64,000 bases of DNA, from the NCBI GenBank assembly GCA_002454195.1, contig DKIJ01000013.1:21182-85181 (forward strand), written 5' to 3'. Below are positions 36,892 to 43,477 of the stretch, piece by piece. The DNA is from Flavobacterium sp. UBA6721 (GTDB lineage: Bacteria; Bacteroidota; Bacteroidia; Flavobacteriales; Flavobacteriaceae). The position numbers and the translations under genes are program-made. The notes under the pieces were generated by a model. It did no database searches, was not told where the DNA came from, and worked only from the letters and a program-made list of their open reading frames with translations. The number at the start of each line of letters is the position of its first letter. Position 1 is the first letter of the stretch.

Positions 36892-39800
36892 TTAGAATGA
36901 AACGTTTAGTTTAACACCATAACTTTTTGAAGAAGGCAATTGTAATACTTCAAAACCAGGTAAAAGTGTTCCGCCATTTATAGCTTGAGTGTCTGGATCA
37001 ATATTTGGAACTTTTGTCCAAAGGGCCAAATTGTTCCCTATTAAACTTAGACTCATATTTTGTAAACGAGCTGCTTGAGTTATTTTTTTAGAAAAATTAT
37101 AACTGATACTTACTTCTCTAAGTTTTACATACGACGCATCAAAAGTGTTTGCTTCAACATTATCTCTTCGGAACGCATTATAATAATACCATGCCTCTTC
37201 TGTAATTCTTGTTGTGTTTGGGCTATATGTTCCATCTGAATTTTTAACTACACCTTCACCAATAATTCCTAATTCTCTTCCTGGTAATGAAACTGCTAGA
37301 ATTCCACTTTCCATACCGATAGAATTTGTGGTAGAATATATTTTCCCACCTTGTCTAATATCTAATAAGGCGTTTAAGCTCAAATTTTTGTATCTGAAAC
37401 TAGAACTTAAACCCAACATCCAGTCTGGATTATAATTTCCAATTTTTTTAATTTTAGTATCTAAAATTGGCGAACCACTTTCATAAACAATTTGACCATC
37501 AGGACTTCTTAAATACCCTCTTCCATACATGTCACCCATGCGCTCACCAACACGTGCTTCAATTGTACCTCCGTTTGGACCTTGAGCAATGATGTAATTA
37601 TTAATTCCGGCAGTAAGTTCTTTAACGTAACCACGGTTTTGAGTAAAATTAGCATTCAATGACCATTCGATGTTTTCAGATTTTACAGGAGTAATACCCA
37701 AACCTATTTCAAAACCTTTATTTTGAATTTTACCCGCGTTGATTACGTTAGAATTCGATCCTGTAGCTTGCGATACGTCCAATCCTACAATTTGATTTTT
37801 AGAATTAGTTACATAATAACTTGCATCTAAAGTCAAACGATTTTTAAAGAATTGACCTTCAACACCCACCTCATATGAAGTTGCAATTTCGGGTTTCAAA
37901 TTACTATTTAAGATTGAACTAGGATTAGTAAGAGTTCCTGCTAACGAACCGCTATTGTATGTTTTTTCTAAACGATACGGTTCAGTATCATTTCCTACTG
38001 AAGCTGCATTCAAACGTAATTTCAAGAAGTTTATATTTTTGTTCATTTCAAAAACAGAGGTTGGAATAAAACTTAATGAAGCTGACGGATAGAAATATGA
38101 ATTATTTGAAGCTGGTAAAGTAGACGACCAATCATTTCTTCCAGTGATATCAAGGTATAAATATTCTTTGTACCCAATATTCATTACACCATAAACACTG
38201 TTAATGCGTTTTTTAAATATATTTCTTAATAATGAAGGTGTAACATTGATGTTTTGGAAGTTATATATTCCTGGAATACTAATTCCTTTTCCTTCAATTT
38301 TACTTTCCGATGTTACTTGGTTCATTCTGTTGGCGCCAAATGAAACTTTAGAGGTAAAATTTCCAATTGTACGATTGTAAGACAATAAGAAATCAGTGTT
38401 GTACTCTGTAAATGCAATTTCTTGCTCACGATACATTCCACCCGGATATCTGGAAGAACCCAAAGGCCTTTTAGATGTTCTTAAATCATTTGAATCATCA
38501 ATACCTGCACGAACCATCAAAGACAAATTGTCGTTAATTTCATAAGTAGAGGCAATATTTCCGTACAAACGACCTTTTTTGAAAGCATTCGTATTTTCAT
38601 ACGCAATTTTGAAAGGATTGTCTCCCCAGCTAAACATACTATTTTGTTTCACATCAGGTGTAATCCAATAGTTTTTTAACCAGTCTAAGTCAACGTTAGT
38701 GTGGTTCCACAATAAATTGTACATGATTCCTTGACTTCCGTAACCTGTTACTGGCGTGTTGTCACTTTTACTTCTGATATAGTTAGCAACAGTAGATACC
38801 TTCCATTTGTCAGATATTTTGTAATTAACATTAACACTTACATTGTTTCTTTTTAAATTAGAGTTAGGCACAATGTCTTCAGCTGAGTTGTTCCCATAAC
38901 TTAATCTAAAATTTGTTTTTTCATCTGAACCAGTAATAGAAACTGAATTTGAAACTGAATTTCCAGTTCTGAAAAAGTCTTTTAAATTGTATCTGAATTC
39001 AAATGGAAGTGCCACTGCTTCTCCAACAGAATATCCAGGACTACCATTTTGTAAAACTGAAGTGCCTACACCAAATTTTGGTCCAAAGTTGGTGTCTGCT
39101 TGTGGATCATAAGTTTGAAAATAACCTCCACCATATACACCTTGTATTTCTGGTAAACGTAACGCTTCACTTGCCATGTAAGAAGATGAAACCGATACTC
39201 CTAAGCCTTTGTTTTTTCTTCCTGATTTAGTGTTAATAACAATTACACCATTTGCCGCTCTAGAACCGTATAGTGCTGAAGCCGCTGCGCCTTTAAGTAC
39301 GTTAACACTTTCAATGTCTTCTTGATTAATTTCTGAAGCTCCATTTCCATAATCAGTAGGAAGGTCAGTTTGTGTAGTTGGACCACTACCTACACCATAA
39401 ATCGAATTGTTGATTGGAATTCCATCCACTACAAATAAAGGTCCGTTATTATTAATATTTAAAGACTTATCACCTCTAATTACAACTCTTGTAGAACTGG
39501 TTATACCATTTCCAGCTCCTGTAATTTGCAATCCAGACACTTTACCTGTCAAGTTAGAAACAAAATTAGAGGAATTTACTTTATTAATATCCGATGACTT
39601 CAATTCTTGTGAAGCATACCCTAAAGATCGTTTTTCTCTTTTAATACCAAGAGCGGTAACAACTACCTCTCCTAATACTTGAGAATTAGGTTCTAGTACA
39701 ACATTAATTGATGTTTTATTTGCTACTTCAACTTCTTTGTTTGCATACCCGATATAGGAAAACACGAGTACTTGAGCTGCTTCTATTTTGATGGAATAAT

Positions 39801-39978
39801 TTCCATCCATATCAGTAATTGAACTAAGTTTAGAACCTTTTACTACGACACTTGTACCCGGCAAAGGACTTCCAGATGGATCCGTGACTTTACCAGCAAT
39901 TGTTTTTGTTTGTCCAAAACTTAGATGAACACAAAAAACAATTAAAAAAAACAACATTTTTTTCCCGATTACTCTCAT
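36892..39978 (-). CDS. SusC/RagA-type TonB-linked outer-membrane transporter
   Basis: A 1028-aa SusC-family receptor. Signal peptide (MLFFLIVFCVHLSFGQ), carboxypeptidase-like domain (TIAGKVTDPSGSPLPGTSVV, about 25-95), TonB-type box/plug with LGEVVVTALGIKREKRSLGY and the SusC signature VLKGAAASALYGSRAANGVI, then a large barrel ending KSYGVKLNVSF. It imports the substrate captured by SusD using TonB energy. The partner enzyme is a PhoD-like phosphatase, not a glycosidase, so organic phosphate esters are the likely cargo. No AraC, hybrid or anti-sigma regulator is adjacent. Confidence 0.93.
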   Translation of the reverse strand: MRVIGKKMLFFLIVFCVHLSFGQTKTIAGKVTDPSGSPLPGTSVVVKGSKLSSITDMDGNYSIKIEAAQVLVFSYIGYANKEVEVANKTSINVVLEPNSQVLGEVVVTALGIKREKRSLGYASQELKSSDINKVNSSNFVSNLTGKVSGLQITGAGNGITSSTRVVIRGDKSLNINNNGPLFVVDGIPINNSIYGVGSGPTTQTDLPTDYGNGASEINQEDIESVNVLKGAAASALYGSRAANGVIVINTKSGRKNKGLGVSVSSSYMASEALRLPEIQGVYGGGYFQTYDPQADTNFGPKFGVGTSVLQNGSPGYSVGEAVALPFEFRYNLKDFFRTGNSVSNSVSITGSDEKTNFRLSYGNNSAEDIVPNSNLKRNNVSVNVNYKISDKWKVSTVANYIRSKSDNTPVTGYGSQGIMYNLLWNHTNVDLDWLKNYWITPDVKQNSMFSWGDNPFKIAYENTNAFKKGRLYGNIASTYEINDNLSLMVRAGIDDSNDLRTSKRPLGSSRYPGGMYREQEIAFTEYNTDFLLSYNRTIGNFTSKVSFGANRMNQVTSESKIEGKGISIPGIYNFQNINVTPSLLRNIFKKRINSVYGVMNIGYKEYLYLDITGRNDWSSTLPASNNSYFYPSASLSFIPTSVFEMNKNINFLKLRLNAASVGNDTEPYRLEKTYNSGSLAGTLTNPSSILNSNLKPEIATSYEVGVEGQFFKNRLTLDASYYVTNSKNQIVGLDVSQATGSNSNVINAGKIQNKGFEIGLGITPVKSENIEWSLNANFTQNRGYVKELTAGINNYIIAQGPNGGTIEARVGERMGDMYGRGYLRSPDGQIVYESGSPILDTKIKKIGNYNPDWMLGLSSSFRYKNLSLNALLDIRQGGKIYSTTNSIGMESGILAVSLPGRELGIIGEGVVKNSDGTYSPNTTRITEEAWYYYNAFRRDNVEANTFDASYVKLREVSISYNFSKKITQAARLQNMSLSLIGNNLALWTKVPNIDPDTQAINGGTLLPGFEVLQLPSSKSYGVKLNVSF

Positions 39979-40386
39979 TTTTTTTAAGATTAAATTAACG
40001 AGGCAATATTATCGGATTTGTTGCAGTAGAGTATTAAGCTACAATTAAATGTAGTAACTAAGGGTTTTAACAAAATTTAGCTTATTTAAACTCAAAGTTT
40101 GTAGTATGTTAAATTTTAGTTTTGTGTGTAGAATTAAATCTAATACACAAATAATTTTTAATCAATGATTAAATTATAGTTGAAATACATTATTACGAAT
40201 TACAAGTAAAAAACACAAATTAATTAATTGAAATTCATTAATATACGTTTTAAATTTATTGAAAGACATTGGTAGAATTTGTATTCAACATAAATTAAAA
40301 AACTATTTGATTTTCTGAAGGTTATCGGTTCGGTATAAAAAAACAAATGACCTTAAAAATGAATTTAAGGTCATTTGTTCAACTTG
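39979..40386. other. Gene-free spacer upstream of SusC
   Basis: About 400 bp, very AT-rich. It must hold the susC operon promoter, but no clear minus-strand TAnnTTTG is visible. An imperfect dyad TTTGTGT / ACACAAA lies near 40120-40155. The end is copy 2 of the tRNA-terminator repeat. Confidence 0.6.
40301..40379 (-). terminator. Copy 2 of repeat; terminator of tRNA-Arg
   Basis: On the minus strand, 7 bp after the tRNA, ACAAATGACCTTAAA pairs with TTTAAGGTCATTTGT and is followed by TTTTTT: a strong terminator. The extended sequence, including CGAACCGATAACCTTC downstream, is duplicated at 34280-34356. Confidence 0.8.
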
Positions 40387-40460
40387 TGACCGCGGAGGGG
40401 TTCGAACCCCCAACCCTCAGAGCCGAAATCTGATATTCTATCCAGTTGAACTACGCAGCC
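40387..40460 (-). tRNA. tRNA-Arg (anticodon TCG)
   Basis: A 74-nt cloverleaf on the minus strand. Acceptor GGCTGCG pairs with CGCGGTC; D-arm follows (GTTC AACTGGATA GAAT); anticodon stem TCAGA/TCTGA holds the loop TTTCGGC, giving anticodon TCG (reads CGA); T-arm GGGGG TTCGAAC CCCTC; discriminator A. CCA is not encoded. The 5' end is one base after the stop codon of the GIY-YIG gene, so both must share a transcript unless the tRNA promoter lies inside that gene. Confidence 0.92.
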
Positions 40461-40461
40461 A

Positions 40462-40707
40462 TTATTTTATTAATTTTTCTTTTAAAAACTCTCTTCCACT
40501 TCCTGTCTTCAAATATTTTTCACGAAGAACAGCTTCTTCTCTTGTATCAAATTCTTCAAAATAAACTAATCTCCACGGCTTATATCCTTTAGTAGATTTA
40601 GTTTTACCTGAATTATGTTCTATTATCCTTTTATCAATATCAGACGTATGCCCTTTATATAGCCTACCATCAACTTCACTTTCTAAAACATATACAAAAT
40701 ACCCCAT
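40462..40707 (-). CDS. GIY-YIG nuclease-domain protein (81 aa), inserted at tRNA-Arg
   Basis: A single GIY-YIG domain. The signature is GYFVYVLES and YKGHTSDIDKRIIEHNSGK with the usual Tyr, Gly, Arg and later Glu in VYFEEFDTREEAVLREKYLK (REKYLKTGSG is typical of the small UPF0213/YhbQ-like group). It starts 8 bp after a broken tRNA-Arg 5' half and ends 1 bp before an intact tRNA-Arg, with the 36-nt 5' half of the tRNA repeated on both sides. Such context suggests a homing-type or tRNA-targeting element consisting of little more than the ORF. The activity on this tRNA gene is inference. Confidence 0.88.
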   Translation of the reverse strand: MGYFVYVLESEVDGRLYKGHTSDIDKRIIEHNSGKTKSTKGYKPWRLVYFEEFDTREEAVLREKYLKTGSGREFLKEKLIK

Positions 40708-40715
40708 TTATTGTT

Positions 40716-40771
40716 GAAATCTGATATTCCCTGCCTGTCGGCAGACAGGTATCCAGTTGAACTATGCAGCC
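40716..40771 (-). pseudogene. Broken tRNA-Arg 5' half with a 20-bp insertion
   Basis: On the minus strand GGCTGCATAGTTCAACTGGA-TA, then a 20-bp palindrome, then GAATATCAGATTTC. Without the palindrome it equals the first 36 nt of the intact tRNA-Arg apart from one change (G7 to A). It ends after the second base of the anticodon. The 3' half is missing; the GIY-YIG gene follows. Confidence 0.88.
40730..40749. repeat. 20-bp imperfect palindrome inside tRNA fragment
   Basis: CCTGCCTGTCGGCAGACAGG, a nearly self-complementary GC-rich word placed between GGATA and GAATA of the tRNA D-arm. It is far richer in GC than its surroundings. Similar CCTGCCTG/CAGGCAGG words are, from memory, dispersed repeats in Flavobacteria. 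Confidence 0.65.
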
Positions 40772-40780
40772 ATAATATAA

Positions 40781-40850
40781 AATTCCAATTTTTTAAATTC
40801 CAAATCCCAAGATTAAAATTGGAATTTGGAATTTCCTTTTTGGAATTTCT
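40781..40850. repeat. Degenerate heptamer repeat (10 units)
   Basis: Ten consecutive 7-bp units from AATTCCA and ATTTTTT through AAATTCC, AAATCCC, AAGATTA, AAATTGG, AATTTGG, AATTTCC, TTTTTGG to AATTTCT. The first half uses TTCC words and the second half GGAA words, so the array is also an inverted repeat overall. It fills the spacer after yqeY. Confidence 0.7.
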
Positions 40851-40859
40851 ATTTTAGTT

Positions 40860-41309
40860 TTACACTAATAATTTTTTCACAATAGTAGAAACTGTTTTTC
40901 CTTCAGCAGCTCCTCCTAATTGTGATGTAGCTAAGCCCATTACTTTACCCATAGAAGCAATCCCTGAAGCTCCAGTTTCAGCGATAATTTTTGCGATTAC
41001 TGCTTCTGTTTCTGCCTCACTTAATTGCGCAGGCAAAAACTTTTCGATTACAGCAACCTGAGCCAATTCTGGTTCGGCTAAATCAGGACGATTTTGCTCT
41101 GTATAAATTCTAGCACTTTCTTTACGAGTTTTAACCAAACGTTGTAATAATTTGATTTCTTCCTCTTCTGAAATTTCTTCTTTAGAACCTGAGGCGGTTT
41201 GCGCTAAAAGTAATTCCGATTTTATTGCTCGTAAAGCTTCTAAAGCAACAGTATCTTTTGCTTTCATGGCTGTTTTCATTTCATCCATGATTTTTGATGA
41301 TAAACTCAT
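40860..41309 (-). CDS. yqeY: GatB/YqeY domain-containing protein
   Basis: A 149-aa protein of the YqeY family, homologous to the C-terminal, tRNA-binding part of the GatB amidotransferase subunit. Family segments: MKAKDTVALEALRAIKSELL (about 15-34), RRLVKTRKESARIYTEQNRPDLAEPE-like block, IEKFLPAQLSE and the tail MGKVMGLATSQLGGAAEGK with VSTIVKKLL. Function is still unclear, perhaps in tRNA quality or amidation. It is separated from ftsZ by a terminator and so is not part of the dcw operon. Confidence 0.9.
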   Translation of the reverse strand: MSLSSKIMDEMKTAMKAKDTVALEALRAIKSELLLAQTASGSKEEISEEEEIKLLQRLVKTRKESARIYTEQNRPDLAEPELAQVAVIEKFLPAQLSEAETEAVIAKIIAETGASGIASMGKVMGLATSQLGGAAEGKTVSTIVKKLLV

Positions 41310-41430
41310 TTGTATGTTTTTAAGTAAGCAAACTTGCTTAGTTAGACTTTTAATTGATAGTGGTGAATCAAACTAAAAAAATGCTCATTACAAGCATAGG
41401 TTTTTGTAAATAACACTGCGCGAAGTTAAA

Positions 41431-41476
41431 AAAAATAACCCGAAAATTAAATGCAATCTTCGGGTTATTGTTTTTG
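41431..41476 (-). terminator. Terminator of the dcw operon after ftsZ
   Basis: On the minus strand AATAACCCGAAG pairs with TTCGGGTTATT, followed by eight T residues. It ends the mraZ-ftsZ transcript. Confidence 0.85.
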
Positions 41477-41488
41477 AAATTAATTTAA

Positions 41489-43477
41489 CTAATCTACATT
41501 ATCATGCAAATAAGAATTGTTAGAACGCAATTGTAAGTCATTATTACTATCTGTTCCAACAGAAATTCTTGAGTTGGCATTATTTGTTTGATTATTAGAA
41601 ATATCGATACCTAATCTTTTATAAGCTGGCTCTTTTTCGTATTCATCAATTTTTGATACGTTGTTATGAAACTTATAATTAAATTCTTTTAATTTTTTTC
41701 GTCTCTCATCGGCTCTTAAACGCAACGTTTCTTCGATTGTCATTTCAATAGGAGAAATATCTTCATTTCTTGTGAAATCTTCTGGAGCCGACTCAATTTT
41801 CTTCATTGTAATATTCAATTCCTCTGGAATTACTTCTTCTACAACTTTTGCTGCAGGTTTAGAAGACAACAATTCGTTTTCAGCGTCCATGTATTCTTCT
41901 AGAGAATATTTGATAACCCCATTATCAGACAACTCAGTTACTGGAACAAATTGAACCGCTTGATTCACTTTTATCTCCTTAGTTTCATTTGTCAATTCAA
42001 ATATAATTTTCTCTTCTTTAGCAGCAACTGGCGCAGACTTTACTGGTTCTGGTTTAACCGGTTCTGATTTGTAAAGTGGCAATTCAAATGAAAAAGAGGT
42101 TTGTTCTTGTTTTTCAACAACTTTTGGTTGTTCAACAACAGCTTTAACTTCTTCTACTTTTGGTGCAGAAAAAGTAAATTCCTCTTCTTTTATTGGTGAA
42201 ACGATTTCAAAAGTAACATCTATATTTTTAATAAATTCAGACATTGCCATTAATTCCTCATTCCCTGGAACAGGTACTGGCTGCTCAACAACTTGTGGTG
42301 CCTCAGCTATTACCTCCTCTTCTTCATCGATTAATTCAAAAACCACTCTTTCTTCTGGAGCGCTTACTGGCTTATCAATGTTTAAGTCAAAATTCGCTAC
42401 TGGAGTATTACTTAGATTATGAACAATTTTTTGCTCATCTTCTAAGGTATGAATGATTTTTTTAGGTTCTGTATTTACAATTCCGCTTTGTTGTTCAATA
42501 TCAAATCCTGTTGCAATAATAGTCACAGCAACGGCATCTCCTAATGATTCATCTTCACCAACCCCCATGATGATATTAGCATTATAACCAGCTTCACTTT
42601 GAATATGGTCATTAATTTCACCAATCTCATCTAAAGTAATTTCATTAGAACCAGAAACGATGAGCAACAATACGTTTTTGGCACCTGTAATTTTATTATC
42701 ATTCAATAAAGGAGAGTCTAATGCAGCGATAATAGCTTCTTTCGCTCTGTTTTCTCCTGATGCAACAGAAGATCCCATAATTGCTGTTCCGCTATTTGCT
42801 AATACCGTTTTAGCATCACGTAAATCGATATTTTGAGTGTAGTGATGTGTAATAACTTCAGCAATCCCTCTAGAGGCTGTAGCTAATACTTCATCCGCTT
42901 TTGAGAATCCGGCTTTGAAACCAAGATTACCGTAAACTTCTCTTAACTTATTATTATTAATTACAATAAGAGAATCTACTTGTTTACGTAATTTTTCAAT
43001 ACCAATAAGTGCTTGTTCTTGACGAACCTTACCTTCGAAAGTAAATGGTAAAGTAACAATACCAACAGTTAAGATTTCTCTTTCTTTAGCCAGCTGAGCA
43101 ATTACAGGCGCAGCACCAGTTCCAGTACCTCCACCCATTCCGGCAGTAATAAACACCATTTTAGTATTGCGATCTAACATTTTTTCAATATCAGCGATAC
43201 TTTCAATAGCCGACTGTTGTCCTACATCTGGATTTGCTCCAGCACCTAAACCTTCAGTTAAGTTAACACCTAATTGAATTTTGTTAGGAACAGCACTATT
43301 TTGTAATGCTTGTGAATCTGTATTACAAACAATGAAATCTACCCCTTTGATTCCTTGTTTAAACATGTGATTGATCGCGTTGCTTCCGCCCCCACCAACA
43401 CCGATTACTTTTATAACATTTGATTGATTTTTAGGTAAATCAAATGAAATACTTCCAAATTCTGAGTTGCTCGTCAT
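41489..43477 (-). CDS. ftsZ: Cell division GTPase FtsZ with long C-terminal extension
   Basis: A 662-aa tubulin-like GTPase that forms the division ring. The GTPase core (about 1-330) has VIGVGGGGSNAINHM, the tubulin signature GGGTGTGAAPVIAQ and the catalytic loop NANIIMGVGEDESLGD. It is followed by an unusually long acidic, Val/Pro-rich linker (about 345-600), then a conserved block ERRKKLKEFNYKFHNNV and a probable C-terminal peptide EPAYKRLGIDIS. A further ~40 Asn/Ser-rich residues extend past that peptide. Long FtsZ is usual in Flavobacteria, but the extra tail is notable. Last gene of the dcw operon. Confidence 0.95.
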   Translation of the reverse strand: MTSNSEFGSISFDLPKNQSNVIKVIGVGGGGSNAINHMFKQGIKGVDFIVCNTDSQALQNSAVPNKIQLGVNLTEGLGAGANPDVGQQSAIESIADIEKMLDRNTKMVFITAGMGGGTGTGAAPVIAQLAKEREILTVGIVTLPFTFEGKVRQEQALIGIEKLRKQVDSLIVINNNKLREVYGNLGFKAGFSKADEVLATASRGIAEVITHHYTQNIDLRDAKTVLANSGTAIMGSSVASGENRAKEAIIAALDSPLLNDNKITGAKNVLLLIVSGSNEITLDEIGEINDHIQSEAGYNANIIMGVGEDESLGDAVAVTIIATGFDIEQQSGIVNTEPKKIIHTLEDEQKIVHNLSNTPVANFDLNIDKPVSAPEERVVFELIDEEEEVIAEAPQVVEQPVPVPGNEELMAMSEFIKNIDVTFEIVSPIKEEEFTFSAPKVEEVKAVVEQPKVVEKQEQTSFSFELPLYKSEPVKPEPVKSAPVAAKEEKIIFELTNETKEIKVNQAVQFVPVTELSDNGVIKYSLEEYMDAENELLSSKPAAKVVEEVIPEELNITMKKIESAPEDFTRNEDISPIEMTIEETLRLRADERRKKLKEFNYKFHNNVSKIDEYEKEPAYKRLGIDISNNQTNNANSRISVGTDSNNDLQLRSNNSYLHDNVD

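What the first reader, a model, noticed from the sequence alone, without database searches (positions are those of the whole stretch)
40387..40771. GIY-YIG ORF as a minimal insertion in the anticodon of tRNA-Arg
Reading the minus strand: a tRNA-Arg 5' half ending after the second anticodon base, 8 bp, the GIY-YIG start codon, the 81-codon ORF, its stop, one base, and then a full tRNA-Arg. The 36-nt 5' half is therefore a direct repeat and the inserted piece is only ~255 bp of new DNA. The broken end lies within the anticodon loop, a classic target of tRNA-integrating elements. An endonuclease ORF that inserts into a tRNA gene and restores it would be a very small self-sufficient selfish unit. 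It also places the tRNA directly behind an mRNA.
Basis: partly seen in the sequence, partly recalled or inferred. Interest (0 to 1): 0.75.

Follow-up and report, generated by a model that had tools for sequence, protein, structure and literature searches.

The report
tRNA-parasitic GIY-YIG nuclease mini-element
A very small nuclease gene sits wedged against a tRNA gene in this bacterium together with a broken, palindrome-split copy of that tRNA, and the same arrangement recurs beside specific tRNA genes in many related bacteria, which points to a tiny selfish element that spreads through tRNA genes without destroying them.

Summary
The orthologous site is empty in 28 of 29 relatives read. Of 80 named loci of close homologues, 78 lie beside a same-strand tRNA (74 Arg). 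The palindrome is inserted cleanly at a TA^G step of the D-loop (56 of 57 distinct rule-recognised units). In 33 of 73 distinct units the ORF stop lies inside the tRNA. Other nuclease clades use Val, Pro, Met, Ala, Asn, Phe, Asp or Leu tRNAs, usually mirrored (tRNA-terminator-ORF-split 3' part), some in tandem arrays. Clades match tRNA isotype. The ORF is under purifying selection and less diverged at silent sites than its neighbours, so it probably moves. Best reading: a minimal free-standing homing-type element, working like phage SegB but chromosomal, without a DNA-binding domain and with a palindrome-split target copy. Cleavage, homing and the palindrome's role are inferred. The anticodon as insertion point is not supported; the fixed point is the D-loop.

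The parts
40750..40771 (-). displaced tRNA-Arg 5' part (22 nt, up to the D-loop GGATA)
   Evidence: aligns to tRNA positions 1-22, 1 mismatch by reading
40730..40749 (-). 20-bp near-palindrome CCTGTCTGCCGACAGGCAGG inserted cleanly in the D-loop (GGATA^GAATATC)
   Evidence: the motif CCTGNCTGNCGNCAGNCAGG is at 6 places in the genome
40716..40729 (-). continuation of the displaced tRNA copy (14 nt, to the anticodon loop)
40462..40707 (-). GIY-YIG nuclease ORF, 81 aa, catalytic domain only
   Evidence: AF2 mean pLDDT 89.1; Y6, Y17, G19, R27, E63 invariant in 20 clade members
40386..40460 (-). intact tRNA-Arg(UCG), 1 nt behind the ORF stop
   Evidence: the only tRNA-Arg(TCG) among the 30 tRNA matches of the incomplete own genome
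40343..40378 (-). hairpin behind the tRNA, terminator-like
   Evidence: inverted repeat seen
40860..41309 (-). YqeY gene, conserved upstream neighbour that defines the orthologous site

Best explanation
A minimal chromosomal homing-type element. The 81-aa GIY-YIG nuclease (isotype-matched by clade) is inferred to cut the DNA of its cognate tRNA gene in an unoccupied genome. Repair by homologous recombination, using the tRNA pieces flanking the ORF as homology arms, copies the unit in and leaves one intact tRNA. The displaced tRNA copy carries a palindrome at a fixed loop site, which I infer marks the target or cut site and keeps that copy from being recut and from acting as a tRNA. The matching flanks also let units expand and collapse into tandem arrays. 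In the window's form the tRNA is transcribed through the nuclease ORF. SHOWN: anatomy, recurrence, isotype-matched clades, empty sites, purifying selection, silent-site divergence below the neighbours, arrays, ORF-less derivatives. INFERRED: cleavage, the cut site, recombinational homing, the role of the palindrome, and how the resident intact tRNA is spared.
For: Tight tRNA link: 78 of 80 named loci; in 60 relatives 32 of 126 GIY-YIG ORFs lie within 250 bp of a tRNA, all same strand, with a partial tRNA copy on the far side in 30 of the 32 by reading (27 clear, 2 decayed, the window). Isotype-matched clades: 15 label changes against a shuffled mean of 49.9, 0 of 200 as low. Empty sites: YqeY followed by tRNA-Arg(TCG) in 30 of 30 loci, a GIY-YIG match only in the window's genome. 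Mobility: fourfold sites less diverged in the ORF than in YqeY in 77 of 90 pairs and than in FtsZ in 71 of 91; control YqeY below FtsZ 33 of 91. dN/dS median 0.19 in 76 usable of 91 pairs. Tandem arrays of up to 6, one member of that array with stops inside. Precedent: SegB cuts in tRNA genes and drives tandem amplification (PMC13096335).
Against: The protein is a bare catalytic domain, so the source of sequence specificity is unexplained. The intact tRNA next to the ORF keeps the presumed target, so self-cutting must be limited somehow. ORF and YqeY identities still correlate (Spearman 0.80), so part of the spread is vertical or between close kin. The ORF is short and the pairs are not independent. 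Nuclease clades follow the anticodon more than the host order on 62 rows (11 against 18 changes; shuffled 30.4 and 31.3), but outside Flavobacteriales (33 rows) the two labels are about equally clustered (5 of a shuffled 9.4 against 13 of 22.0), and Arg-TCG units are 23 of 25 in Flavobacteriales. No homologue was found in viral contigs, and only generic ones under 60% identity in phages and plasmids, so the vehicle between cells is unknown. The split copy tracks the local tRNA (0.26 against 2.69 mismatches per 20 nt), which could also mean local duplication or gene conversion.
Confidence: 0.6

Rival explanations
1. The GIY-YIG protein is a mobiliser of short palindromes (REP/RAYT-like): the palindrome is the mobile unit, and the tRNA copy is only a favoured landing site.
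For: A palindrome is in nearly every split copy read. Palindromes are also dispersed: 6 places in the window's genome. The CCTG palindrome occurs in 20 of 22 genomes whose CCTG-type units I had read and in 41 of 376 others; leaving out four genomes where the copies seem to be only the unit's own (G139, G247, G127, G266) it is 16 of 22.
Against: TCCCGATNNNNATCGGGA is dispersed 50 and 31 times in G006 and G009, where no tRNA-linked GIY-YIG ORF was seen (G006: one hit, no tRNA near; G009: none at E 1e-3). 41 of 376 other genomes have the CCTG palindrome; one of them (G377) turned out to carry a unit, and some others have nuclease matches that I did not read. Different nuclease clades carry different palindromes. 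The ORF follows tRNA isotype.
Confidence: 0.15
2. Addiction/RNA system: the protein is a nuclease that attacks one tRNA (RNA level) and the split tRNA copy is an RNA decoy or antitoxin.
For: Isotype-matched clades; the split copy is probably transcribed with the ORF and tracks the local tRNA.
Against: GIY-YIG domains act on DNA in the families named here (partly recalled); many copies keep only a short tRNA stretch; ORF-less copies survive; the 3'-type ORF lies behind a terminator-like hairpin.
Confidence: 0.08
3. Passive tandem duplication of a tRNA gene that happened to trap a COG2827-type GIY-YIG gene; no mobility.
For: Flanking copies match the local tRNA; ordinary tRNA tandem repeats exist; ORF-less split halves exist (G326, G127, G266).
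Against: The same anatomy recurs at many isotypes and across Bacteroidota orders with matched clades. Of 15 of 398 genomes with the split half, 14 have the ORF beside it. The silent-site signal of transfer.
Confidence: 0.07

Closest known systems
T4/T6 SegB, free-standing GIY-YIG homing endonuclease of the tRNA region
   Same: GIY-YIG nuclease gene beside tRNA genes (tRNA-Arg/tRNA-Ile in T4, PMC2988022 passages); cuts in tRNA genes and drives tandem segmental amplification by homologous recombination (PMC13096335 abstract, sections 9-10, passages). Its motif RAWTSGAAC is, reverse-complemented, T-loop-like (my comparison), and several Leu units carry the palindrome within GTTCGA^TTC.
   Different: Phage-borne; SegB is described as not favouring particular tRNA isotypes; no palindrome-split tRNA copy is mentioned in what I read. 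Here: chromosomal, 81 aa, isotype-matched clades, ORF abutting or overlapping the tRNA.
UPF0213/COG2827-like stand-alone GIY-YIG proteins (BH0048, 1zg2)
   Same: Closest solved relative by sequence and top match by fold search; single small domain.
   Different: Relatives of this ordinary kind form one side of a branch in the tree: 69 rows, of which 67 have no tRNA within 900 bp in the stretch held and 2 are Asp-linked (SH-aLRT 81).
Integrative elements that restore a tRNA gene at their att site (recalled)
   Same: Insertion duplicates part of a tRNA and leaves an intact one.
   Different: No integrase; about 311 bp in all; the displaced part is split by a palindrome.
REP palindromes with RAYT transposase (recalled)
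   Same: Short dispersed palindromes near a small nuclease gene.
   Different: GIY-YIG, not a Y1 transposase; the gene follows the tRNA, not the palindrome; palindromes also disperse where no tRNA-linked ORF was seen.
Slx1 structure-selective nuclease
   Same: Good superposition (TMq 0.70-0.74 for 6seh chains).
   Different: Only the catalytic domain is shared; no Slx4 partner seen. The resemblance merely allows structure-based recognition.

Membership tests
free-standing (intronless) homing endonuclease, SegB-like | intact GIY-YIG catalytic residues | tested here: met
   Y6, Y17, G19, R27, E63 invariant in 20 clade members (their catalytic role is recalled); fold predicted at mean pLDDT 89.1
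free-standing (intronless) homing endonuclease, SegB-like | presence/absence polymorphism at one allelic site | tested here: met
   YqeY-tRNA-Arg site, 30 loci: 1 filled (the window's), 1 ORF-less remnant, 28 empty
free-standing (intronless) homing endonuclease, SegB-like | horizontal spread into homologous sites | tested here: met
   silent-site divergence below both neighbours; indirect, pairs not independent
free-standing (intronless) homing endonuclease, SegB-like | site-specific cutting of the allele that lacks the gene | not testable with these tools
   needs biochemistry
free-standing (intronless) homing endonuclease, SegB-like | DNA-binding domain next to the catalytic domain (known for I-TevI; recalled) | tested here: not met
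   one Pfam domain spanning residues 3-70 of 81
UPF0213/COG2827 GIY-YIG | single small GIY-YIG domain related to UPF0213 structures | tested here: met
   1zg2, E 2e-11
REP/RAYT | Y1 transposase gene flanked by its palindromes | tested here: not met
   the only ORF of 50 aa or more in the insertion is GIY-YIG
tRNA-targeting integrative element | site-specific integrase in the element | tested here: not met
   no other ORF of 50 aa or more lies within the 311-bp insertion
group I intron homing endonuclease | self-splicing intron around the ORF | tested here: not met
   no intron family among Rfam matches up to E 1 in 38000-43000; the tRNA is intact beside the ORF

The most novel reading that the evidence does not exclude
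The palindrome-split tRNA copy is a working part, not debris: its hairpin is the nuclease's handle (as DNA cruciform or RNA) and the flanking tRNA-identical arms select the tRNA gene to be cut, so a bare 81-aa GIY-YIG domain gets its target from a nucleic-acid copy beside its own gene. This would be a nucleic-acid-addressed mobile nuclease, re-addressed to a new isotype or species by gene conversion with the resident tRNA. It fits the missing DNA-binding domain, the near-constant palindrome, the fixed loop position and the tracking of the local tRNA.
Probability: 0.12. Interest if true: 0.95.

Novelty: new variant of a known kind. Interest (0 to 1): 0.84.

Why it matters
It points to a group of very small mobile units (about 300-390 bp), found in several Bacteroidota orders, that live in tRNA genes without destroying them and in many cases end their coding sequence inside the tRNA. 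It offers a chromosomal, non-phage counterpart of SegB, a natural experiment on how a bare GIY-YIG domain achieves tRNA-isotype specificity, and a possible explanation for split pseudo-tRNAs and miscalled tRNAs in Bacteroidota genomes. Cultured hosts exist (for example Flavobacterium ranwuense, F. xinjiangense, Algoriphagus iocasae, Pedobacter cryotolerans; titles). Ten searches of the held literature library listed no paper that from its title and the start of its abstract describes it; two searches listed only 12 of 21 and 8 of 10 papers, and subscription papers and preprints are not held.

Tried and rejected
Anticodon as insertion point: rejected as the fixed point, because the tRNA stretch kept after the palindrome varies while the palindrome position does not.

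Palindrome dispersal caused by this ORF: tested by counts; association found, but dispersal also occurs where no tRNA-linked ORF was seen, so kept only as a rival.

Phage or plasmid vehicle: no relative in viral contigs by the pattern scan, only generic GIY-YIG in phages and plasmids.

An in-frame GIY-YIG in HsdM (G016), sister to the window's ORF on the tree, has no tRNA beside it and counts against a perfect tRNA link.

Recounts and rows dropped. One search used a mistyped 17-nt pattern and was discarded; one search repeated the question. The 'genus' and 'named' sets overlap: 11 of the 13 genus loci are the same places as named loci and one (G203) is identical in the compared ORF stretch to the window's, so I recounted on 82 distinct units, which replaces 64 of 65, 33 of 83, 0.28/2.37 and 81 of 82 by 56 of 57, 33 of 73, 0.26/2.69 and 72 of 73. 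The rule allows at most 3 mismatches to the own tRNA, which favours the 'tracks the local tRNA' result; with 6 allowed it is 58 units and 0.33 against 2.72. The rule missed 16 of the 73 units with a tRNA downstream; by reading 14 of the 16 show a palindrome, some imperfect or partly masked, and 2 (L285, L321) do not. Nine distinct units have no tRNA downstream and lie outside the rule. One search also printed a 'B5 match' length that is unreliable and not used. In one search, 27 of 91 pairs had undefined dS and were dropped; one search used fourfold sites instead, and its eight-genome subset was chosen by me. In one search, protein fragments under 55 aa and duplicates were left out (121 tree rows from 126 ORFs), and 14 loci were labelled by my reading of their tRNA copy. 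In one search, 72 of 80 named units entered the tree; its 'order' label held unresolved names, so one search repeated the test on the 62 rows with a real order. The Fisher tests (20 of 22 and 17 of 22) predate the finding that G377 carries a unit and that G266's copies are its own; one search gives 16 of 22.

Full report
Observation. The minus strand of 40386-40771 reads: 22 nt of tRNA-Arg 5' part, a 20-bp near-palindrome, 14 nt more of the tRNA, 8 nt, an ATG, 81 codons, TAA, one T, and an intact tRNA-Arg(UCG). The ORF is a GIY-YIG protein. The upstream neighbours are YqeY and FtsZ (named by me from its sequence).

Empty site. YqeY finds the same place in relatives: 30 of 30 loci read, one of them the window's own, have tRNA-Arg(TCG) directly behind it (30 of 56 matching genomes were read). 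Only the window's locus holds a GIY-YIG match within the stretches held. One (L148, G025) has a decayed split half without an ORF; 28 have neither. Eleven genomes of its genus match, by ORF sequence and most by place of the hit, named loci, for example G201 with Flavobacterium ranwuense, so the genus is very probably Flavobacterium.

It recurs. In 60 relatives, 126 distinct GIY-YIG ORFs were taken from loci of 38 genomes; 32 lie within 250 bp of a tRNA, all on the same strand. Reading them: 27 have a clear partial copy of the same tRNA on the far side, 2 a decayed one, 1 is the window, 2 show none there. The usual order is the mirror of the window: intact tRNA, terminator-like hairpin, ORF, split 3' part of the tRNA, hairpin copy. 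The palindrome replaces the anticodon arm or part of it (Val, Pro, Ala, Met, Asp) or sits in the T arm (Asn, Phe). Units form tandem arrays of about 350-390 bp period: six matches in G007 (one with stops inside), five in G022, three in G017.

Clades match the tRNA. On a tree of 121 of these proteins the tRNA-isotype labels need 15 changes against a shuffled mean of 49.9, and tRNA-linked against not-linked needs 3. 'Not linked' was defined as no tRNA within 900 bp in the stretch held, and 14 loci were labelled by reading; 67 of the 69 not-linked rows fall together with 2 Asp-linked rows. Few columns and many open forks limit the tree.

The window's own clade. Among 398 genomes of the genus, 14 have a close Arg-type protein; G377 carries one more, cut by a contig end. 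Thirteen of the 14 have the window's orientation; G074 has the same ORF in the mirrored form with two palindromes. Leu(CAA) units carry CCTGCCTGCCGGCAGGCAGG or a variant in the T arm, cleanly at GTTCGA^TTC in several. A scan of species genomes kept the best 80 of 102 relatives; two of the 80 loci come from one bin; every title that names a taxon names a Bacteroidota member, one says only 'bacterium'. Of these, 78 are beside a same-strand tRNA within 465 nt: 74 Arg (TCG, CCT, TCT, ACG), 3 Met, 1 odd call; the two misses are short contig-end loci. On 82 distinct units (named plus genus, overlaps removed), 73 have a tRNA downstream. The rule recognised the split 5' part with its palindrome in 57; 56 of these have the palindrome at a TA^G step in the D-loop (two neighbouring steps are used in Arg-CCT). 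The split copy differs from its own intact tRNA by 0.26 of 20 nt on average and by 2.69 from other loci with the same anticodon; the rule's mismatch cap favours this. In 33 of the 73 the ORF stop lies inside the tRNA, at the UAG of positions 8-10 in 15 and at GGAUAG in 12. The intact tRNAs keep 7 of 7 acceptor pairs in 72 of 73.

Is it the ORF or only a duplication? The split-half pattern is in 15 of 398 genomes. The ORF lies beside it in 14. G326 has an ORF-less remnant of the kind also seen as a second half in G127. G266 has one ORF unit followed by four tandem 116-bp ORF-less copies. These look like deletion derivatives.

Mobility. dN/dS among Arg-type ORFs has median 0.19 over the 76 usable of 91 pairs. 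ORF dS is below YqeY dS in 37 of 40 unsaturated pairs, 58 of 64 defined, 91 in all. At fourfold sites the ORF is below YqeY in 77 of 90 pairs and below FtsZ in 71 of 91, while YqeY is below FtsZ in 33 of 91; in an eight-genome subset that I chose, all 28 pairs show the ORF below YqeY. Pairs are not independent, the ORF is short, and ORF and YqeY identities still correlate at 0.80. On a tree of 72 named units anticodon needs 14 changes (shuffled 37.1) and host order 26 (shuffled 40.0); on the 62 rows with a real order it is 11 (30.4) against 18 (31.3), and on the 33 rows outside Flavobacteriales 5 (9.4) against 13 (22.0), so there the two labels are about equally clustered.

Expression. In 43 five-prime-type named loci the Bacteroidota promoter motif TAnnTTTG (recalled) lies within 60 nt upstream of the displaced half in 21 and upstream of the intact tRNA in 3; none of the TCG loci listed shows it. 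So the tRNA is probably read through the ORF. Where the ORF stop is inside the tRNA, RNase P processing would remove it from the message; coupling of nuclease synthesis to unprocessed transcripts is an inference. T4 homing endonucleases, SegB among them, have RNA hairpins that can block their start sites (PMC2988022, passages).

Protein. AlphaFold2 gives a confident single GIY-YIG domain (mean pLDDT 89.1). The nearest solved structures are UPF0213 BH0048, then Slx1; I-TevI is weaker. There is no room for a separate DNA-binding domain.

Palindrome. Palindromes of these kinds are dispersed in the genus: CCTGNCTGNCGNCAGNCAGG in 61 of 398 genomes, TCCCGATNNNNATCGGGA in 34 of 60, some of the latter being terminator-like hairpins. 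Of 22 genomes whose CCTG-type units I had read (14 Arg, 8 Leu), 20 have the motif against 41 of 376 others; without the four where the copies seem to be only the unit's own it is 16 of 22. The 376 include genomes with nuclease matches that I did not read. Dispersal in G006 and G009, where no tRNA-linked ORF was seen, suggests that the ORF is not required for it.

Mechanism. The closest precedent is SegB, which cuts within tRNA genes and drives tandem amplification through homologous recombination (PMC13096335: abstract, sections 9 and 10, passages). I propose the same logic here: cut the cognate tRNA gene of an unoccupied genome, repair from the unit through the tRNA arms, and keep the displaced copy unusable by a palindrome at the target. 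How the resident tRNA escapes cutting and how a bare domain finds one isotype are open. The novel case treats the split copy as the address of the nuclease.

Noticed in passing
L141 (G016 contig 9, 1-6500): A GIY-YIG domain lies in frame within an open frame of 687 aa that looks like HsdM (named by reading); it is sister to the window's ORF on the tree and has no tRNA beside it.
   Followed up: partly
L007 / G000:C23:103148-103505: A second unit in the window's own genome: tRNA-Asn, hairpin, GIY-YIG ORF, 3' part of tRNA-Asn split by TTCCGATAGCTATCGGAA.
   Followed up: partly
L354 (G266): One ORF unit followed by four tandem 116-bp ORF-less split halves before the intact tRNA, like non-autonomous derivatives.
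   Followed up: partly
L044 and L086, upstream of the first ORF: A similar stretch of about 150 nt ending in the tRNA-Pro 3' end in two species, possibly the remnant of an att site of an integrated element.
   Followed up: no
L058 and L081 (G038): ARAGORN calls the split tRNA-Val copy a tRNA-SeC: these units can create false tRNA annotations.
   Followed up: no
L062 (G010): A Val-type ORF reads on into the decayed tRNA copy, giving a 116-aa protein.
   Followed up: no
G000:C1, C13, C23, C24, C26 (L176, L177, L179-L181): 20-bp CCTG palindromes in other, unrelated sequence of the window's genome; what moves them is unknown.
   Followed up: partly
G394 contig 8, 37811-38052: An Arg-type GIY-YIG match in two overlapping pieces (70% and 75% identity), probably a broken copy.
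   Followed up: no
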